In this document: piece after piece, positions 3,561-10,338 of the stretch
Layout of the letters: every line of letters begins with the position of its first letter
How positions within the stretch are numbered: position 1 is the stretch's first letter
From: Tuwongella immobilis
GTDB lineage: Bacteria > Planctomycetota > Planctomycetia > Gemmatales > Gemmataceae
Direction: 5' to 3'
Assembly: GCF_901538355.1 (NCBI RefSeq)
Contig: NZ_LR593887.1
Span: 2,208,920 to 2,272,919 of the forward strand
Length of the DNA stretch: 64,000 bases
Notes under the pieces: model-generated
The model's input: the letters and a program-made list of their open reading frames with translations, nothing else
What the model was told of the DNA's origin: nothing
Databases searched by the model: none
Translations under genes and position numbers: made by a program

Positions 3561-3577
3561 CCCGATTCAGAATCGGG
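3561..3577 (-). terminator. short hairpin after the double-glycine peptide gene
   Basis: A perfect 7-bp stem (3561-3567 with 3571-3577) and a 3-nt loop begin 10 nt past the stop codon of the minus-strand peptide gene. There is no convincing T-tract, so terminator function is plausible but weakly supported. Confidence 0.35.
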
Positions 3578-3586
3578 GCGACCCGG

Positions 3587-3703
3587 TTAGCTGCAGCTGC
3601 TGCATTCTTCGGCTTCTTCGTCCTTGCGGTTCAGACCGCCCACGACGAGATCCAATTCCAGGTCGCTCAGATCGCGGTCCATCGGTTCGGTGATGTTCAT
3701 CAT
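3587..3703 (-). CDS. 38-aa double-glycine leader peptide with Cys-containing tail
   Basis: A short ORF starting ATG ATG at 3703/3700, preceded at ideal distance by a strong Shine-Dalgarno GAGGA. The N-terminal part contains LSDLELDLVVGG, the LSxxEL...VxGG pattern of double-glycine leaders that C39 peptidase transporters cut after GG. The remaining 15 residues are Asp/Glu-rich and end in CSSCS. This fits a small secreted peptide or RiPP precursor. The frame continues upstream to 3838 (83 aa), but that extension has no good RBS and the SD itself lies inside it. No C39 transporter or modifying enzyme is in the window. Function is inferred only; the peptide itself looks real. Confidence 0.6.
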   Translation of the reverse strand: MMNITEPMDRDLSDLELDLVVGGLNRKDEEAEECSSCS

Positions 3704-3823
3704 GAGATGTTCCTCAAAAGGTGATGGTATCTTCGACCCTTGGACGGGAATGCCCAATTGGGAACGAAGTGGTTTGAAGGTATCCCGATGATTTCTCGCA
3801 ATCAAGAAAAATCTTCTCGAAAT

Positions 3824-3850
3824 ATCCATTTTATCCACTTTATCCGGATT
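3824..3850. repeat. three 9-nt tandem units (ATCC-T-rich)
   Basis: Three consecutive 9-mers, ATCCATTTT, ATCCACTTT and ATCCGGATT, are followed at 3857-3876 by repeated ATCGATTC. They lie in the 259-nt divergent intergenic region between the double-glycine peptide gene (minus) and the hydrolase gene (plus). The stretch is AT-rich for this genome and could hold regulatory sites; no function is shown. Confidence 0.4.
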
Positions 3851-3962
3851 CTCATTCGAATCGATTCAATCGATTCCTTCGGAATGACGCTGGCAATTCC
3901 GTCGCCAATCGCTACCAATGGCAGAAGCCTGTGGCATTCTCCCCGGACGCAAGGAGTGCGGC

Positions 3963-4862
3963 GTGAGCGACTTTCGCCCCGAAGTGGAACCGGATTCATT
4001 GGCCGCCGCGGTGCGGGCCTGCCAGCAAATGGCTCGCAAAGGGGTGGTCGACACTGGTCGCTACCGACTGCGCTATCTGGCTTGGGGCGATTCCGGGCCG
4101 GCAATTGTGTTCATTCACGGGTTGTCCGATTCGGCCATTTCGTTTGCGGGGGTGATGGCCGCACTCCGCGATCGGTATCGCTGCATTGCCTACGAATTAC
4201 CCGATGGCAAAGCCGATGGCGCTCCGCTGATCCGCTACCAACATACCGATCTCGTCAGCGATCTACTCGCCTTGATGGATGAATTGGCAATTGATCGTGC
4301 ATCGATTCTGGGCTCCTCATTCGGTTCCACGGTCGCCTTGCGTGCCCTTGCCGAAGCCCCCAAGCGATTCCCCGTCGGGATGCTCCAAGGTGGCTTTGCC
4401 TATCGACCACTCCACCCATTGGAACGGCTCGCCGCCCAAATCGCACGCTATCTGCCCTGGCGGATGCGGGATCTTCCGATGATCGAACAATCGCAACAAT
4501 TCGTCGATTGGCCGACCTTCCGAAACGGTTCCCCCGAGGCGTGGAATCTGTTTCGTGTCAGCAGTCGAACGCCTCGTGCGGAGAGCGTAGCCCGTCGCGC
4601 ATTGTTGTTACACTCCAACGACTTACGACCGCTGTTACCACGCATCCAGCAACCCGTGTTGATGATTCGCGGCGAAGCGGATCGCGTGATTCCTCCCGAG
4701 GTGGAAGCCACCGCGTTGGATGCGCTGCCGAATGTGACGCAAACGATGATGCCCGGATGTGGGCACTATCCGCAATATTTGCAGCCGCGTCAGATGGCCG
4801 ATGCGATGCACGCCTTTCTGGTGGCCCATGCCGGGATTCTCTCGACGGGAGCAACACGCTGA
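3963..4862 (+). CDS. alpha/beta hydrolase fold protein
   Basis: A 299-aa cytoplasmic alpha/beta hydrolase. I place the start at GTG 3963 because AAGGAG lies 6 nt upstream; an in-frame start at 3918 has no RBS. Motifs in order: oxyanion FIHGLS, nucleophile elbow GSSFGS, acid in GEADRVIPP, and base in GCGHYPQYLQP. This is the MhpC/BioH-type arrangement, but the substrate cannot be deduced. The stop overlaps the start of the ABC permease gene by one base (TGATG), so the two are translationally coupled. Confidence 0.85.
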   Translation: MSDFRPEVEPDSLAAAVRACQQMARKGVVDTGRYRLRYLAWGDSGPAIVFIHGLSDSAISFAGVMAALRDRYRCIAYELPDGKADGAPLIRYQHTDLVSDLLALMDELAIDRASILGSSFGSTVALRALAEAPKRFPVGMLQGGFAYRPLHPLERLAAQIARYLPWRMRDLPMIEQSQQFVDWPTFRNGSPEAWNLFRVSSRTPRAESVARRALLLHSNDLRPLLPRIQQPVLMIRGEADRVIPPEVEATALDALPNVTQTMMPGCGHYPQYLQPRQMADAMHAFLVAHAGILSTGATR

Positions 4863-6316
4863 TGCCTGTTTGGACCATTGCTGGGAAAGATCTGCGATTG
4901 CTGATGCGTGATCCCCGCGCTGCAATCATCCTGCTGCTGATGCCGATTTTGTTTATCCTGGTGCTGGGCTTGAGTTTGGGCGAAGGATTTGGCCGAAACT
5001 CGGATGCCAAATTGCGCATCTCTGTGGTCAACCTGGATGCCGGTCCGCCCGAAGATGCGGGTGATTTTCCCGGGCGTCCCTGGAGCCAAGTCGTGCTCGA
5101 CGATTTGAGCAAGACCGCTGGCATTCGCATCGAACGAATTGACGATCTCGAGACCGCTGAACGGTTGGTCCGTCGTGGAGAGCGACCTGCGGTGGTGGTG
5201 ATTGGCGAGTCATTCAGTCGATCGATGCAGCGTTGTACCTTCTTGGCCGAGGGGGGGCTGTTCGGCATCGGTCGCAGCAAATCGCCGCCGGGAATCAACC
5301 CATTTTACCGCGACGGCATCGATATTCGCCGGTTGGATGTCGCCGTGTTGCGCGACCCCACCCAGGCAGTCGGGGCGGCGGTGGTCGATCAAGTGGTGCA
5401 GGTGTCGCTGTTGCGGGTCGTGATGCCTTGGATGATTGGCCGGGCGTTTGATCGCGTTGCGGAGACCTTGCCCCAACCCGCACCGCTGATGATTCAACGC
5501 ATGTTCAGTCGCTATGATTTGCGGGCGAAAACCTGGGCCGATCTCACGCTCAGTCGCGGGCAATCGCTGGCGATTCTGGGGCAACTGCTGGCCGGGGGGA
5601 CGCTGCCATCGCTGGCGTCGCCGAACTGGGCCGGCCTTTCGCTGCTCGATTCCATCGCCATTCGCGATTCCAAAACCGATGCCTATCAAGAAGATGGGAG
5701 CGGTTGGCTGAAACAAGGGGCGATTCGTTATCAGATTCTGGTGCCATCGTATACGGTGATGTTCGCCTTCTTTTTGGTGCTGACCTGCGGCTGGCTGTTC
5801 GTGGGGGAACGTCGGCAGGGAACGTGGGTCCGATTACGGGCCGCTCCGATTGCCAGACACACGTTACTGCTTGGCAAGATGCTCCCGTGTCTGGGGATCG
5901 CCGTGGTGCAGGGGATGAGTCTATTCCTGGCAGGAAAAATCATCTTTGGCATGAACTGGGGGCCATCGCCCGTCATGCTGTTGCCCGTGATTCTTGGCAC
6001 CGCGTGGGCCGCAACCGGAGTCGCCATGTTAGTGGCCGGATTCGCCCGAACCGAAACGCAGGTTGCCATTTACGGCACGCTGCTGGTGCTGGTGTTGGCC
6101 GGTGTGAGTGGAACGCTGATGCCTCGGGAATTTCTCCCGGAAGAAATGCGGCTGATTCGACTATTCACTCCGCATGCCTGGGCGGTAGATGCCTATTCGC
6201 AACTGCTGATCGCCGAAAAGCCCGAATTGGATCTCGTCTGGCGGAATTCAGCGGTTCTTGGATTATTCGGGTTGGGAACCTTGTTGGTCGCCTGGTGGAA
6301 GTTGCAACGGGACTGA
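4862..6316 (+). CDS. ABC-2 type transporter permease
   Basis: A 484-aa membrane protein of the ABC-2 (DrrB/YhgE/YbhR-like) family. One TM helix near residues 20-40 (ending LGLSLGEGF) is followed by a large extracytoplasmic domain of about 250 residues, then five or six hydrophobic segments in the last 190 residues; GWLFVGERRQGTW before the second TM and the LMP...PEEMR..LFTPHAWA region near the end are typical. No ATPase gene is adjacent, so it must use one encoded elsewhere. The ATG at 4862 overlaps the hydrolase stop; the frame is open to 4508 but that part is a shadow of the hydrolase. Exported substrate unknown. Confidence 0.85.
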   Translation: MPVWTIAGKDLRLLMRDPRAAIILLLMPILFILVLGLSLGEGFGRNSDAKLRISVVNLDAGPPEDAGDFPGRPWSQVVLDDLSKTAGIRIERIDDLETAERLVRRGERPAVVVIGESFSRSMQRCTFLAEGGLFGIGRSKSPPGINPFYRDGIDIRRLDVAVLRDPTQAVGAAVVDQVVQVSLLRVVMPWMIGRAFDRVAETLPQPAPLMIQRMFSRYDLRAKTWADLTLSRGQSLAILGQLLAGGTLPSLASPNWAGLSLLDSIAIRDSKTDAYQEDGSGWLKQGAIRYQILVPSYTVMFAFFLVLTCGWLFVGERRQGTWVRLRAAPIARHTLLLGKMLPCLGIAVVQGMSLFLAGKIIFGMNWGPSPVMLLPVILGTAWAATGVAMLVAGFARTETQVAIYGTLLVLVLAGVSGTLMPREFLPEEMRLIRLFTPHAWAVDAYSQLLIAEKPELDLVWRNSAVLGLFGLGTLLVAWWKLQRD

Positions 6317-6325
6317 AATGAAACA

Positions 6326-6355
6326 AACCACCCTTCCGGGGGAGGAAGGGTGGTT
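6326..6355 (+). terminator. 12-bp hairpin after the ABC permease gene
   Basis: A perfect 12-bp stem (6326-6337 with 6344-6355) and a GGGGGA loop start 9 nt after the permease stop. Flanking GAAATGA and TCATTTC can extend the pairing. There is no long T-tract. It is also the first member of the G-loop hairpin array described in the next entry, so its role could be terminator, RNA element or both. Confidence 0.55.
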
Positions 6356-6517
6356 CTCATTTCGAGCTGTGAGAAGGATTTGGGGAAACGCCTTCTCGGG
6401 GGTTCTGTTCAGATGCAAATGGGGAAATCCGCATCCAAAGCCGGTTGGGGGTTCGACCATCCGGGGGAAGGATGGCTCGTACAACCGAGATCGCGAGTCA
6501 TCGGGGGAGATTTCTCG
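6326..6517 (+). ncRNA. candidate RNA: five hairpins with G4-5A loops
   Basis: Five successive stem-loops each expose a G-run followed by A. Stems: 6326-6337/6344-6355 (loop GGGGGA); 6371-6377/6391-6397 (apical GGGG closed by TTT/AAA); 6412-6416/6431-6435 (TGGGGA in loop); 6457-6462/6470-6475 (loop GGGGGAA); 6494-6497 plus 6500-6502 with 6509-6511 plus 6514-6517 (loop GGGGGA). The stretch codes for nothing convincing. Repeated GGA-presenting hairpins are the hallmark of CsrA-sequestering RNAs such as CsrB/RsmZ, but here that is an analogy, and no promoter was identified. It could also be a 3' UTR or the leader of the gene at 6764. Confidence 0.3.
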
Positions 6518-6763
6518 TCGACGAAAGAGTATGAATGCACTCCGTGTGCCAATTCTTGAATCGTTTTCGATGTCGTGATTCTGAATTCCCGTAAGCTCAA
6601 TTCCGATCGATAGTTGTGGCGAAAAAGAAATTTTTGAGCCATGTCGTGCTTGCGGAGTCGAGAAGATTCCGCTGCGACAAAGTTGGTCAATTTTACCGAT
6701 TGCGTGTAAATCATACCTGCCCGATCGGGCCTCAGGCTCCCGCATTTTCTGGAGAATTGCCGA
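6518..6763. other. non-coding stretch before the glucuronate isomerase-like gene
   Basis: About 245 nt with no credible gene on either strand; the long minus-strand ORFs crossing it are shadows. It contains a weak AAAAA-GAAA-TTTTT hairpin near 6631 and a TGGAGAA that serves as RBS for the gene at 6764. I see no further structure in it. Confidence 0.5.
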
Positions 6764-8032
6764 ATGGCTGCCGACAAGTTGCACGGCGATCTGGTCGCCG
6801 CTTTGACCGCGATTCCGTTGATTGACCCACATTCGCACATTGACCCGTATGCGCCGACATCGCGGACCTTGGACGACATTCTCGGCTACCATTACTACAC
6901 CGAATTGGCCCACTCTGCGGGGATGAGTCAGGCACCGCTCGCGGCGGATGTCCCGCCGGTGGAACGGGTTCGGGCGATTCTCGGGCATATCGATCGCTTC
7001 AACAATACCGCGCAATACCGCTGGCTGATCGATATTCTGCAATCCTTCCTGGGGTGGGAATCGAATCATGTCTCGGCGGCGGATGCGGATGCGCTGTTCG
7101 CCAAGTCGGAAGCGGTCTTCGGACAGGCCGATTGGGAACAGCAAGTCTTCGAGAAGACGAACCTGGAAAAGATCTTTCTGACAAACGAGTTTGATGATTC
7201 GCTCGAAGGCTTTGACACCGCACGCTATGTGCCATGCCTGCGGACCGATGGGTTGGTGTTTCAACTGAATCTGCCGGTGATCCGCGAACGATTGGCCAAG
7301 CGAACGGGAATTCAAGTCGGTGATGCGGCGACGCTGCGAGCGGCGATCCGAAAATTGTTCGAGCACTTTGTCGCTCACGGCGCGCGGGCGTGTGCCATCT
7401 CGCTCCCGCCGAGTTTCACCCCCGTGCATATTCCGAGCGCCGAAATCGACCGCGTTCTGAGCGGATTCGAGCCGAATGACGCCGATGCGGCGGTGCGGGC
7501 GAGCGCGGTATTCTGGACCATCGCCGAATGCTGCCGCGAATTTGCCCTGCCGTTCGATCTGATGATCGGCGTCAATCGTCGAGTCTATCGCAATGGTGTC
7601 TATCAGGGGCAAGATCTCTTCGATTCTCGAACTTCGCTGGTGCAATATCAGGAATTGTTCAATGCCTTCCCGGATGTGGTGTTTCCCGTATCGGTGCTGA
7701 GCAGCTTCCAAAATCAGGAACTGGTGAGTCATTCGTGGATTTTCCCGAATGTCATTACCTCGGGACACTGGTGGTACTCGAACATTCCGACGTACATTGC
7801 CAGCGACTTGCGAGCACGCTTGCAAGCGGTGCCGAAAACGAAGCAGATTGGCTACTATTCCGATGCGTATAAGTTGGAATTCGTCCGACCGAAGTTCGGA
7901 ATGTATCGATCGGTCTTGGCCCATGTGTTGGCCGATGAGTTTGTGCGGCCTGGCATTTTGAGCGAGACGCAAGCCGTCGAATTGGGCCGACAATTGCTGC
8001 GGGAAAACGTGCGGCAGATCTTCAAGATTTGA
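6764..8032 (+). CDS. glucuronate isomerase (UxaC)-like amidohydrolase
   Basis: A 422-aa protein of the metal-dependent amidohydrolase superfamily. Near the N-terminus, LIDPHSHIDP (His23, His25) is the beta-1 metal-binding motif. The C-terminal part, including a GHWWYSN segment and YYSDAYK..EFVRPKFGMYRSVLA, resembles UxaC-family proteins that interconvert glucuronate and fructuronate, though the protein is somewhat shorter than classical UxaC (about 470 aa). Planctomycete homologues are usually annotated as glucuronate isomerase. There is no uxuA/uxuB or kdg gene nearby to confirm the pathway. Starts at ATG 6764 with TGGAGAA upstream. Family firm, substrate moderately sure. Confidence 0.75.
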   Translation: MAADKLHGDLVAALTAIPLIDPHSHIDPYAPTSRTLDDILGYHYYTELAHSAGMSQAPLAADVPPVERVRAILGHIDRFNNTAQYRWLIDILQSFLGWESNHVSAADADALFAKSEAVFGQADWEQQVFEKTNLEKIFLTNEFDDSLEGFDTARYVPCLRTDGLVFQLNLPVIRERLAKRTGIQVGDAATLRAAIRKLFEHFVAHGARACAISLPPSFTPVHIPSAEIDRVLSGFEPNDADAAVRASAVFWTIAECCREFALPFDLMIGVNRRVYRNGVYQGQDLFDSRTSLVQYQELFNAFPDVVFPVSVLSSFQNQELVSHSWIFPNVITSGHWWYSNIPTYIASDLRARLQAVPKTKQIGYYSDAYKLEFVRPKFGMYRSVLAHVLADEFVRPGILSETQAVELGRQLLRENVRQIFKI

Positions 8033-8048
8033 GCGTCGGTAAGCGAAA

Positions 8049-8086
8049 CATCCCGACGAGCGACATTCAAGTCACTCGTCGGGATG
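8049..8086. terminator. bidirectional hairpin between convergent genes
   Basis: A perfect 12-bp stem (8049-8060 with 8075-8086) that can be lengthened inward to 16 positions with one mismatch. It lies between the stop of the gene at 6764 (plus) and the stop of the gene at 9608 (minus), where a shared terminator is expected. No T-tract follows on either side. Confidence 0.7.
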
Positions 8087-8108
8087 CAATTTGACAATCG
8101 GGCGATGA

Positions 8109-9608
8109 TTACTCTTTCGGTGCCATATCGACCATGCCCGCGAGCGCTTTAATCACCATGGCGGAGGGGCGAGTGCCAGCTTGATAGCCCCACATCGAGT
8201 GGAGCAGTTCGTAGCTCATCAGCCCACACAGGAAAATCACGGGGACCGTGAAGAACAGCATGGCGATGGTGAAGGGACCCCACGGCGTGGGACGATAGAC
8301 ACCCGCCGGGGCGACTTCGTCTTCGTCCTCGTCATCGTCGTTTTTGCGGGCACCCGCAAGAGCCTTACTCGCCGAATCGCTGGTATCCAGATCATCGTAG
8401 TCGAGTTCATCATCATCATCCGCTGCCCGGCGGCGACGCGACGAACGACCCGCTTGCAGGTCTTCATCCACAACGACCACTTCGGAGGCCGATTCATCGA
8501 GCGGCGCTTCGTCGTCATCCAAGGCCAGATCGGATGACCCTTCGAGATCGGTATCGGCTTCTTCGAGTTCAAGCGATTCCGAGGCCGAATCTTCGACAGC
8601 CGGAATATCGAAATCGGTTTCGAAGATGTCGCCGCTTGGCTTGTCGATTTCCAGCGACGATGCGGGATCGTCGTCCATCATCGAATCCGGGGCCAAATCC
8701 GGCAGTTCGAGATCGAATTCGCTCGATTCTTCGTTCGCGAGATTCATGCTCGAACGCGGGCCTTTGTGACGTCCCGTGGACGAGGCATTGGTATCCAGGC
8801 TCAGTTCGAAGTCGATATCTTCGTCGGGGTTGGAATCGGCCGGGCGAGATGCTGCCCCACCCAACGTCTTCGGACCTTTGCCTTCCAGCGAGATCCCCGA
8901 ATCGGCAGGCGAGCCGAGGTTGATGCCGCTTTCGCCGCCACGATTGCCCGAACGCGACACTGGGAGATCACCCAGCGACACTTCTTCGCTGTCGGCATCG
9001 GACGAGACATCCAGTTGGAAGTCGCTGGAGCCATCGAGTTGCAGGTCGAATTCCGAGCTATCCGCGGAGGCATCCGCGTTCAGCTTCACGCTGGAATTCC
9101 CGGCAACCGGCGGTGCATCGGGATTGGAATCATCCAATTGGAGCGAGAACGGGGCATCATCGGAGCCACCCGCATTCCCGATCGATGGCGACTTGGTGCC
9201 GAGCTTCACATCCGAGTCAATGGGACGCGAATCGTCGGGGGTCATGACAAACATGTCATCATCGCCACCGAGATCGAGCGGCTCATCATCCGAAGCGGGG
9301 GAACCGATCGAGGATGCCGCGGTGGTGGATTCGTTGTTTTGGAATCCGAACGGAGATGGAGCCACGTCCGCTTGGACAGTCGGTTCCGGTGCATCGAACA
9401 TGAGCGGGTCAATCGCCAGATCCGGCGAGCTGTCTTCGCCCATGGATCGGGCCAGATCGTCAATATCGGTGGCACGGAATCGAAGGGTCGCCCCGTCGCG
9501 GAACGGACGGATGGCCTTCCATTCTTCCCGGAGGCGACGTTTCATCTCTTCGGGCGTGATGCCGAGACGCTGGGCAGCCTCTTCAAGCGTGTAGTAGTTC
9601 TGCGCCAT
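8109..9608 (-). CDS. HTH-headed acidic protein with C-terminal membrane anchor
   Basis: A 499-aa protein in three parts. Residues 1-55 (YYTLEEAAQRLGITPEEMKRRLRE...) look like an excisionase/MerR-type winged helix. Residues about 60-415 are low-complexity and very rich in Asp, Glu and Ser, probably disordered. The last 65 residues hold a strongly hydrophobic segment (GPFTIAMLFFTVPVIFLCGL) and a weaker one. Such an arrangement would tether the acidic region and DNA-binding-like head to the inner membrane. A strong strand-specific codon pattern makes the opposite ORFs shadows. No clear Shine-Dalgarno. Function unknown; similar proteins occur in Gemmata relatives. Confidence 0.8.
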   Translation of the reverse strand: MAQNYYTLEEAAQRLGITPEEMKRRLREEWKAIRPFRDGATLRFRATDIDDLARSMGEDSSPDLAIDPLMFDAPEPTVQADVAPSPFGFQNNESTTAASSIGSPASDDEPLDLGGDDDMFVMTPDDSRPIDSDVKLGTKSPSIGNAGGSDDAPFSLQLDDSNPDAPPVAGNSSVKLNADASADSSEFDLQLDGSSDFQLDVSSDADSEEVSLGDLPVSRSGNRGGESGINLGSPADSGISLEGKGPKTLGGAASRPADSNPDEDIDFELSLDTNASSTGRHKGPRSSMNLANEESSEFDLELPDLAPDSMMDDDPASSLEIDKPSGDIFETDFDIPAVEDSASESLELEEADTDLEGSSDLALDDDEAPLDESASEVVVVDEDLQAGRSSRRRRAADDDDELDYDDLDTSDSASKALAGARKNDDDEDEDEVAPAGVYRPTPWGPFTIAMLFFTVPVIFLCGLMSYELLHSMWGYQAGTRPSAMVIKALAGMVDMAPKE

Positions 9609-9952
9609 AGTAGGGACTCGTAGCCTGCTGAACCGGAGGATGAAACGTGAGACGCTGTCGATGCAACACTTTCTACTGCGATTGTAATCGAGAATCGCAC
9701 AAACGCAAATGAACTCGACGGGGATCGGTCATCGACTGCGAAAGATACGACCGATTAGATAGATTGTACGGGCCGTGTCGAGCGAGGAAAAGTACGTTGA
9801 CCTCGAAGCGGGGCTTTCCACGATGTCACAGTCCCTAAGTGGATTCGCGGATTGGCGGTCAGCCTTGCAAAAAATCTGGCAAACCCCCCTTGTGGCCCCC
9901 CCAAAGTGACGCTAAAGTAGTGGTGTTGGAAGCGAATGCGTCCAATAGTGCA
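9609..9952. other. intergenic region upstream of the tRNA-Asp pair
   Basis: 344 nt between the divergent start of the HTH protein (minus) and the first tRNA (plus). It holds a small inverted repeat (GCGATT...AATCGC near 9678-9698), a C-rich run at 9883-9902 and the tRNA promoter candidate at 9890-9918. I find no coding potential; the minus-strand ORF across the tRNAs is a translation of antisense tRNA. Confidence 0.5.
9890..9918 (+). promoter_or_regulatory. candidate sigma-70 promoter for tRNA-Asp genes
   Basis: TTGTGG (9890-9895) and TAAAGT (9913-9918) separated by 17 nt, ending about 35 nt before the first tRNA. Match to consensus is moderate; position fits well. Confidence 0.4.
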
Positions 9953-10026
<74 letters not shown>

Positions 10027-10030
10027 CCTC

Positions 10031-10062
10031 ACAAACGCCGTAGTCAACTCTGCGGCGTTTGT
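10031..10062 (+). terminator. terminator between the two tRNA-Asp genes
   Basis: A 13-bp stem (10031-10043 with 10050-10062, one T-G pair) and a 6-nt loop start 4 nt after tRNA copy 1; the 3' arm ends in GTTTGT and is followed by TCGTTTGT. Confidence 0.65.
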
Positions 10063-10078
10063 TCGTTTGTGATTGCTT

Positions 10079-10152
<74 letters not shown>

Positions 10153-10164
10153 TCTGAAATTCGC

Positions 10165-10195
10165 AAAACCGTGGGCCATATGCCTGCGGTTTTTT
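10165..10195 (+). terminator. intrinsic terminator after tRNA-Asp copy 2
   Basis: A 12-bp stem (10165-10176 with 10182-10193, two G-T pairs), 5-nt loop and a run of six T at 10190-10195. This is the most canonical rho-independent signal near the tRNAs. Confidence 0.85.
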
Positions 10196-10338
10196 CGTTT
10201 CCAATTCCAATCCACCAGCCCGCATTTCGCTTGATGGAATGGATCGGGGCGAGTCTCGGATGCGAAACTCGCCTGATTGTTGGCCTGTTCATTCGACGGC
10301 GATTTCGCTTCCGCAACTCTCGCCCATTCGACGCAGGC

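What the first reader, a model, noticed from the sequence alone, without database searches (positions are those of the whole stretch)
3587..3703. Tiny double-glycine leader peptide with a CSSCS tail
The sequence shows a 38-aa ORF with strong SD, a leader reading LSDLELDLVVGG and a Cys-containing acidic tail. Double-glycine leaders are known to be removed by C39 peptidase-ABC transporters in bacteriocin and RiPP systems. Here it stands alone beside a hydrolase/ABC-2 permease pair transcribed the other way, with repeated motifs in the shared intergenic region. It may be a secreted signal or RiPP precursor of a kind not described for planctomycetes.
Basis: partly seen in the sequence, partly recalled or inferred. 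Interest (0 to 1): 0.7.

Follow-up and report, generated by a model that had tools for sequence, protein, structure and literature searches.

The report
Minimal double-glycine exported peptide, Gemmataceae
A real 38-residue gene in a Gemmataceae planctomycete encodes a short leader of the kind that is cut off during export plus a 15-residue Cys tail; it belongs to a small scattered family in this genome that probably shares one exporter, and what the released peptide does is unknown.

Summary
The 38-aa ORF (3587-3703, -) has a ribosome site and gene-like codon use; the upstream part of the 83-aa frame does not, so the short start is right. The leader fits the published C39 rule: L-12, E-8, L-7, V-4, G-2 G-1.

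It is not alone. The genome (one 6.69-Mb contig) has exactly four DR[ED]L[ST]xxELxx[IV]x[GA]G leaders, each on a short ORF with a different tail; three cluster 2.95 Mb away. None occur in 297 other Planctomycetia (control 0). In 257 Gb of other genomes the pattern hits 16 sites, about 14 of them evident double-glycine precursors.

The genome has one C39 peptidase, in an NHLP/NHLM-type exporter with its HlyD partner, 571 kb away. Of 61 Gemmataceae only this genome and one other have such an exporter; the other encodes an NHLP precursor ending LSDLELETVAGG. A distant planctomycete has Nif11-type precursors ending LSDLELELVSGG with short Cys tails, some near C39 exporters.

Best reading: an orphan precursor cleaved after GG and exported by the distant C39 exporter. 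Modification and role are not shown (no YcaO or SPASM enzyme found; one kinase-LanC protein elsewhere). New member of a known kind.

The parts
3587..3703 (-). 38-aa gene MMNITEPMDRDLSDLELDLVVGGLNRKDEEAEECSSCS
   Evidence: ORF; gene-like codon use, 0.4% of false-frame slices as good; leader shared with three other short ORFs of the genome
3635..3703 (-). Leader peptide, 23 aa, ending GG; C39 positions L-12, E-8, L-7, V-4, G-2, G-1
   Evidence: sequence; rule from PMC6363468; paralogues
3590..3634 (-). Predicted mature peptide LNRKDEEAEECSSCS, 15 aa, acidic, two Cys
   Evidence: inferred from cleavage after GG; cleavage not shown
3711..3715 (-). Shine-Dalgarno-like GAGGA, 7 nt before the ATG
   Evidence: sequence
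3704..3838 (-). Upstream part of the 83-aa GTG frame; probably the untranslated 5' region
   Evidence: codon score -10.4, like false frames
3828..3855 (-). Weak sigma-70-like match (ATGAGA-16-TAAAAT), possible promoter
   Evidence: 9 of 12 consensus; 0.2 expected in the region; not evidence of function
3561..3577 (-). Short inverted repeat just after the stop codon, no U-run
   Evidence: fold z-score -0.38, no terminator match: not significant

Best explanation
The ORF encodes a minimal double-glycine precursor. The 23-residue leader (amphipathic stretch DRDLSDLELDLVVGG) is bound by the peptidase domain of a C39 peptidase-ABC exporter, cut after GG, and the 15-residue tail LNRKDEEAEECSSCS leaves the cell through a type-1-like channel with the HlyD-type adaptor. 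Shown: the gene, the leader rule, the four-member leader family, one apparently intact C39 exporter of the NHLP/NHLM kind in the genome. Inferred: cleavage, export, and that this exporter 571 kb away is the one used, on the pattern of one exporter and several dispersed precursors with unrelated tails. Most likely fate of the tail (inferred, weak): an unmodified secreted peptide, its two Cys oxidised to a disulfide, acting outside the cell as a matrix/biofilm component, competition peptide or signal.
For: Codon use and ribosome site. BLAST to a second short ORF of the same genome, E 0.008, whose neighbourhood proved to hold two more. The pattern DR[ED]L[ST]xxELxx[IV]x[GA]G: 4 exact in this genome, 0 at one mismatch, 0 in 101 other Gemmatales, 0 in 297 other Planctomycetia with control 0; 16 sites in 257 Gb, about 14 in evident precursors. 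Single C39: 120.6 bits, TIGR03796 828 bits and TIGR03794 271 bits over its cut-off 156; Q14, C20, H93, D109 present. Only this genome and G081 of 61 Gemmataceae have such an exporter with the peptidase region, and G081 encodes an NHLP precursor with LSDLELETVAGG, 9/12 identical. In G330 leaders 9-10/12 identical sit on Nif11 precursors with short, mostly Cys-bearing tails; at one of its three loci they lie within a few kb of C39-ABC genes. Leader rule: PMC6363468. Precursors far from exporters are known: PMC2887384.
Against: Exporter and precursor are 571 kb apart, so the link rests on the leader and on there being one C39 only. The exporter scores just under the TIGR03796 cut-off (828 v 853). 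No orthologue of this peptide in any other genome, so selection on the tail cannot be tested. The DR pattern was drawn from the four members themselves. Codon support for the three paralogues is weak or absent. Looser motifs also occur inside long open frames here.
Confidence: 0.77

Rival explanations
1. RiPP precursor: the CSSCS tail is modified (for example lanthionine formed by the kinase-LanC protein encoded 4.1 Mb away) before export.
For: A kinase + LanC-like protein exists (PF05147 67.8 bits, NF038150 146 bits); the tail has Ser and Cys; the exporter kind is that of RiPP systems; unclustered partners are known (PMC2887384).
Against: That enzyme has its own Cys-rich candidate peptide next door (L055:6482-6685) and scores far below the class III/IV cut-offs; of the four tails only this one has Cys, and one has no Ser, Thr or Cys; no YcaO or SPASM match.
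Confidence: 0.12
2. The short ORF is not translated, or is a cytoplasmic micropeptide, and the leader likeness is chance.
For: Only 38 codons; no orthologue; codon evidence is for one short ORF; paralogue p2 has poor codon use.
Against: General motif expected 0.13 times in the window by chance; tight pattern 4 times in this genome and never in 297 relatives or in the reversed controls; largely specific to precursors across 257 Gb.
Confidence: 0.07
3. The 83-aa GTG frame is the real protein.
For: Open frame of 92 codons.
Against: The upstream 45 codons score like non-coding DNA, GC3 0.42 v 0.68 for genes, and a ribosome site sits before the inner ATG.
Confidence: 0.03

Closest known systems
Nif11-like leader precursors (TIGR03798) with short Cys tails, as in planctomycete G330
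   Same: Leader end 9-10 of 12 identical (LSDLELELVSGG), GG site, tails of 3-13 residues, most with a Cys; at one locus C39 exporters lie within a few kb
   Different: They have the Nif11 domain; the window peptide has none and matches no NCBIfam model above cut-off
NHLP precursors (TIGR03793) and the NHLM exporter (TIGR03796/03794/03797)
   Same: Same exporter kind in this genome; G081's NHLP ends LSDLELETVAGG
   Different: No nitrile-hydratase-like domain; precursor not beside the exporter; no TIGR03797 gene seen beside the exporter here
Short class II bacteriocin-type leaders (TIGR01847; CTB family NF038167)
   Same: Leader about 24 aa ending GG; weak NF038167 match at the leader, 14.7 bits
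   Different: Below the cut-off of 32; no family matches the tail; no immunity gene recognised
EbfG1-4 / PteB of Synechococcus elongatus (PMC4997328)
   Same: Several small double-glycine proteins served by one C39 transporter
   Different: EbfG precursors are 9-10 kDa and lie next to pteB; their role in biofilm is shown, here it is not

Membership tests
C39-processed double-glycine leader peptides | L-12, E-8, L-7, hydrophobic -4, G/A-2, G-1 (PMC6363468) | tested here: met
   sequence; all four members
C39-processed double-glycine leader peptides | C39 peptidase-ABC exporter in the genome with catalytic residues | tested here: met
   one, Q14/C20/H93/D109 by position
C39-processed double-glycine leader peptides | Cleavage after GG and export | not testable with these tools
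   needs experiment
C39-processed double-glycine leader peptides | Gene next to its exporter (usual, not defining) | tested here: not met
   571 kb apart; distant precursors are described in PMC2887384
Nif11-like RiPP precursors (TIGR03798) | Nif11-like leader domain above cut-off | tested here: not met
   no TIGR03798 match
NHLP precursors (TIGR03793) | Nitrile-hydratase-like leader domain | tested here: not met
   no match
CTB family bacteriocins (NF038167) | Score at least 32 bits | tested here: not met
   14.7 bits
Lanthipeptides | Lanthionine synthetase linked to the precursor | tested here: not met
   only one LanC-like protein, 4.1 Mb away with another candidate peptide
EbfG-like matrix peptides | Needed for biofilm | not testable with these tools
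   no functional data

The most novel reading that the evidence does not exclude
One C39 exporter serves a lineage-specific set of dispersed mini-precursors whose leaders are pared down from Nif11/NHLP leaders to the bare recognition helix, with unrelated tails (acidic CSSCS, Lys/Glu-rich, Gly/Tyr-rich, Arg/Trp): a planctomycete peptide secretome invisible to current family models, used for attachment or cell-cell signalling.
Probability: 0.25. Interest if true: 0.6.

Novelty: new member of a known kind. Interest (0 to 1): 0.42.

Why it matters
Few secreted small molecules or peptides of planctomycetes are known. A small leader-defined family with one exporter gives named candidates that can be tested directly (one exporter knockout, four peptides), and shows that precursors with a bare 23-residue leader are missed by the curated families, while a pattern for the leader helix alone finds them.

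Tried and rejected
Protein search of the 38-mer in 58 relatives: only chance-level matches outside the genome. 83-aa frame: rejected on codon use. Terminator hairpin and Rfam: nothing significant. Looser C39 motif in the genome: the extra LTDAELDQITAG-type hits lie in frames open across the whole 3-kb stretch and are not short-leader genes. LanC-kinase cluster as partner: not linked. L040 (DRDLNAMDVRLTMGG): looks like the inside of a long coding stretch, not a short ORF (read by eye). Pattern hits in G437 and G503 look like chance: they lie in long frames (281 and 755 codons), and G437 showed no full-length C39 exporter nearby. L072 and L077 likewise lie in longer frames and are not evident precursors. 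SagH-like score of the neighbouring permease (71 bits, cut-off 450) is a general ABC-2 likeness. Other ABC proteins of the genome that match TIGR03796 lack the peptidase region.

Full report
What is there. The ORF at 3587-3703 (-) reads MMNITEPMDRDLSDLELDLVVGG|LNRKDEEAEECSSCS. GAGGA stands 7 nt before its ATG. A codon model trained on the window's 37 longest non-overlapping ORFs scores it 18.2 (real slices 10.3 +/- 7.6; 0.4% of stop-free false frames reach it), whereas the 45 codons that would extend it to 83 aa score -10.4, like false frames. With a reference from four regions the synonymous score is again gene-like, reached by 1.4% of false frames. The third, no homologue in a related genome, is passed only in part: no whole-length homologue exists outside this genome, but the leader has paralogues in it and close likenesses in other planctomycetes.

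The leader. Published work on C39 domains gives L(-12)-x3-E(-8)-L(-7) with a hydrophobic -4 and GG/GA/GS (PMC6363468). The ORF has L-12, E-8, L-7, V-4, GG. BLAST in 59 genomes found one paralogue in the same genome at E 0.008 and nothing convincing elsewhere. That paralogue, MQSVASLSGSVLTHQDRELTELELDGIQGG|MAPKDDEKEKPEKKEKE (C1:5162063-5162206), lies beside two more: MIEQKKTEEVRISAPVEVKADRELSMQELEQIVAG|GAPSNPVRRGGLSINGWKQ (GTG start, C1:5160902-5161066) and MTHIPAHQPTSSTPAPEQRVDRELTDIELEQIVAG|SDGPGYRGVGVSVGFGGGGFGRPGFGYGGFGGPGFGYGRGRYGRW (C1:5160519-5160761). Codon support for these three is mixed: weak for the last two, absent for the first.

How special is the leader. A DNA pattern for the shared part matches the genome four times exactly, with nothing at one mismatch and only chance-like hits at two and three. 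It matches none of 101 other Gemmatales and, slightly tightened, none of 297 other Planctomycetia, with reversed-pattern controls at zero. The pattern was drawn from these four, so its power lies in the relatives and controls, not in the four themselves. In 257 Gb of other bacterial and archaeal genomes it matches 16 sites in 13 stretches; by reading the frames, about 14 are double-glycine precursors: four NHLP-like ones in a row in a cyanobacterium, Nif11-like ones in Ruminiclostridium and Ramlibacter, short ones in Bradyrhizobium and Ruminococcus, and a gammaproteobacterial 38-codon frame ...DRDLTDFELEMISGG|GRSQNSGC much like ours. Two sites lie in longer unrelated frames. This classification is by eye, except where a family model is cited.

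The exporter. The genome has one Peptidase_C39 domain, in a 712-aa ABC protein (C1:1639418-1641556) that scores 828 bits with TIGR03796 (cut-off 853), preceded in the same orientation by a 501-aa TIGR03794 HlyD protein (C1:1641566-1643071) at 271 bits (cut-off 156). Residues Q14, C20, H93 and D109 correspond by motif to LahT Q21, C27, H101 and D117. Of 61 Gemmataceae only this genome and G081 have a TIGR03796-type exporter that includes the peptidase region.

The comparison that carries most weight. G081 encodes an NHLP precursor (TIGR03793, 77 bits) ending EELSDLELETVAGG. A distant planctomycete, G330, has Nif11-type precursors (TIGR03798; three scored at 41-51 bits, cut-off 32) ending ELSDLELELVSGG|GSADCGTSSSTRG, ELSELELDLVAGG|TPNCGGSNV and alike; they lie at three loci, and at one of them (L109) they are within a few kb of C39-ABC genes, while no C39-ABC was seen in the fetched stretches of the other two. 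G481 has an NHLP precursor beside a full TIGR03796/03794 pair. The window leader is 9-10 of 12 identical to the G081 and G330 ones. So the leader end is the one that NHLM-type exporters meet in this phylum, here without the Nif11 or NHLP domain.

Mechanism. I commit to export and cleavage by the single C39 exporter 571 kb away. Shown: gene, leader, family, exporter. Inferred: the pairing, cleavage, export, and the fate of the tail. Precursors distant from exporters, and in genomes without recognised modifying enzymes, are described for NHLP and Nif11 families (PMC2887384). Several small double-glycine proteins served by one C39 transporter, and required for biofilm, are known in Synechococcus (PMC4997328). 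The Gly/Tyr-rich third tail would suit a matrix role, but nothing here tests that.

Modification. No YcaO and no SPASM-type (TIGR04085) match; one kinase-LanC protein 4.1 Mb away with its own Cys-rich candidate peptide. Other radical SAM types, LanB and P450s were not searched. Since only one of four tails has Cys, lanthionine formation is unlikely for the family though open for this tail.

Novelty. The kind is known; this member is new in having only the bare leader, and it escapes the curated families (best NF038167, 14.7 bits against 32). Searches of the held papers for double-glycine peptides or RiPPs in planctomycetes found no description of such a family, which covers open-licence papers only.

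Noticed in passing
L055 (C1:6346000-6364000), 5645-10271: Separate RiPP-looking cluster: methyltransferase, small Cys-rich ORF MTMKMIDLMVAVLPGPAMANCGATCGATCTCSPACSHLPKAGNDTAKPVVSSDDLDALLAAVESISA, ~380-aa unknown, 912-aa kinase + LanC-like protein (NF038150 146 bits, cut-off 650).
   Followed up: partly
L012 8233-9060 (-), C1:5161232-5162059: Gene weakly like YiiX/C92 papain-like enzymes (PF05708 14.5 bits, cut-off 27) lying between two of the double-glycine peptides; may be chance or a partner.
   Followed up: no
L109 (G330:C275:29000-47000): Planctomycete with three Nif11-type precursors with 3-12-residue tails within a few kb of two C39-ABC genes; no modifying enzyme seen among the few ORFs scanned.
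   Followed up: partly
C1:5391996-5398600 and C1:575716, 2910051: LTDAELDQITAG-type motifs inside very long open frames, perhaps repeats of large surface proteins; they imitate the C39 motif.
   Followed up: partly
L078 7034-7077 (-): Gammaproteobacterial MAG with a 38-codon frame ending DRDLTDFELEMISGG|GRSQNSGC, a look-alike of the window peptide; no exporter on the 8-kb stretch.
   Followed up: partly
window 4862-6316 (+): ABC-2 permease without an ATPase gene beside it, preceded by an alpha/beta hydrolase; ordinary families, divergent from the peptide gene.
   Followed up: no
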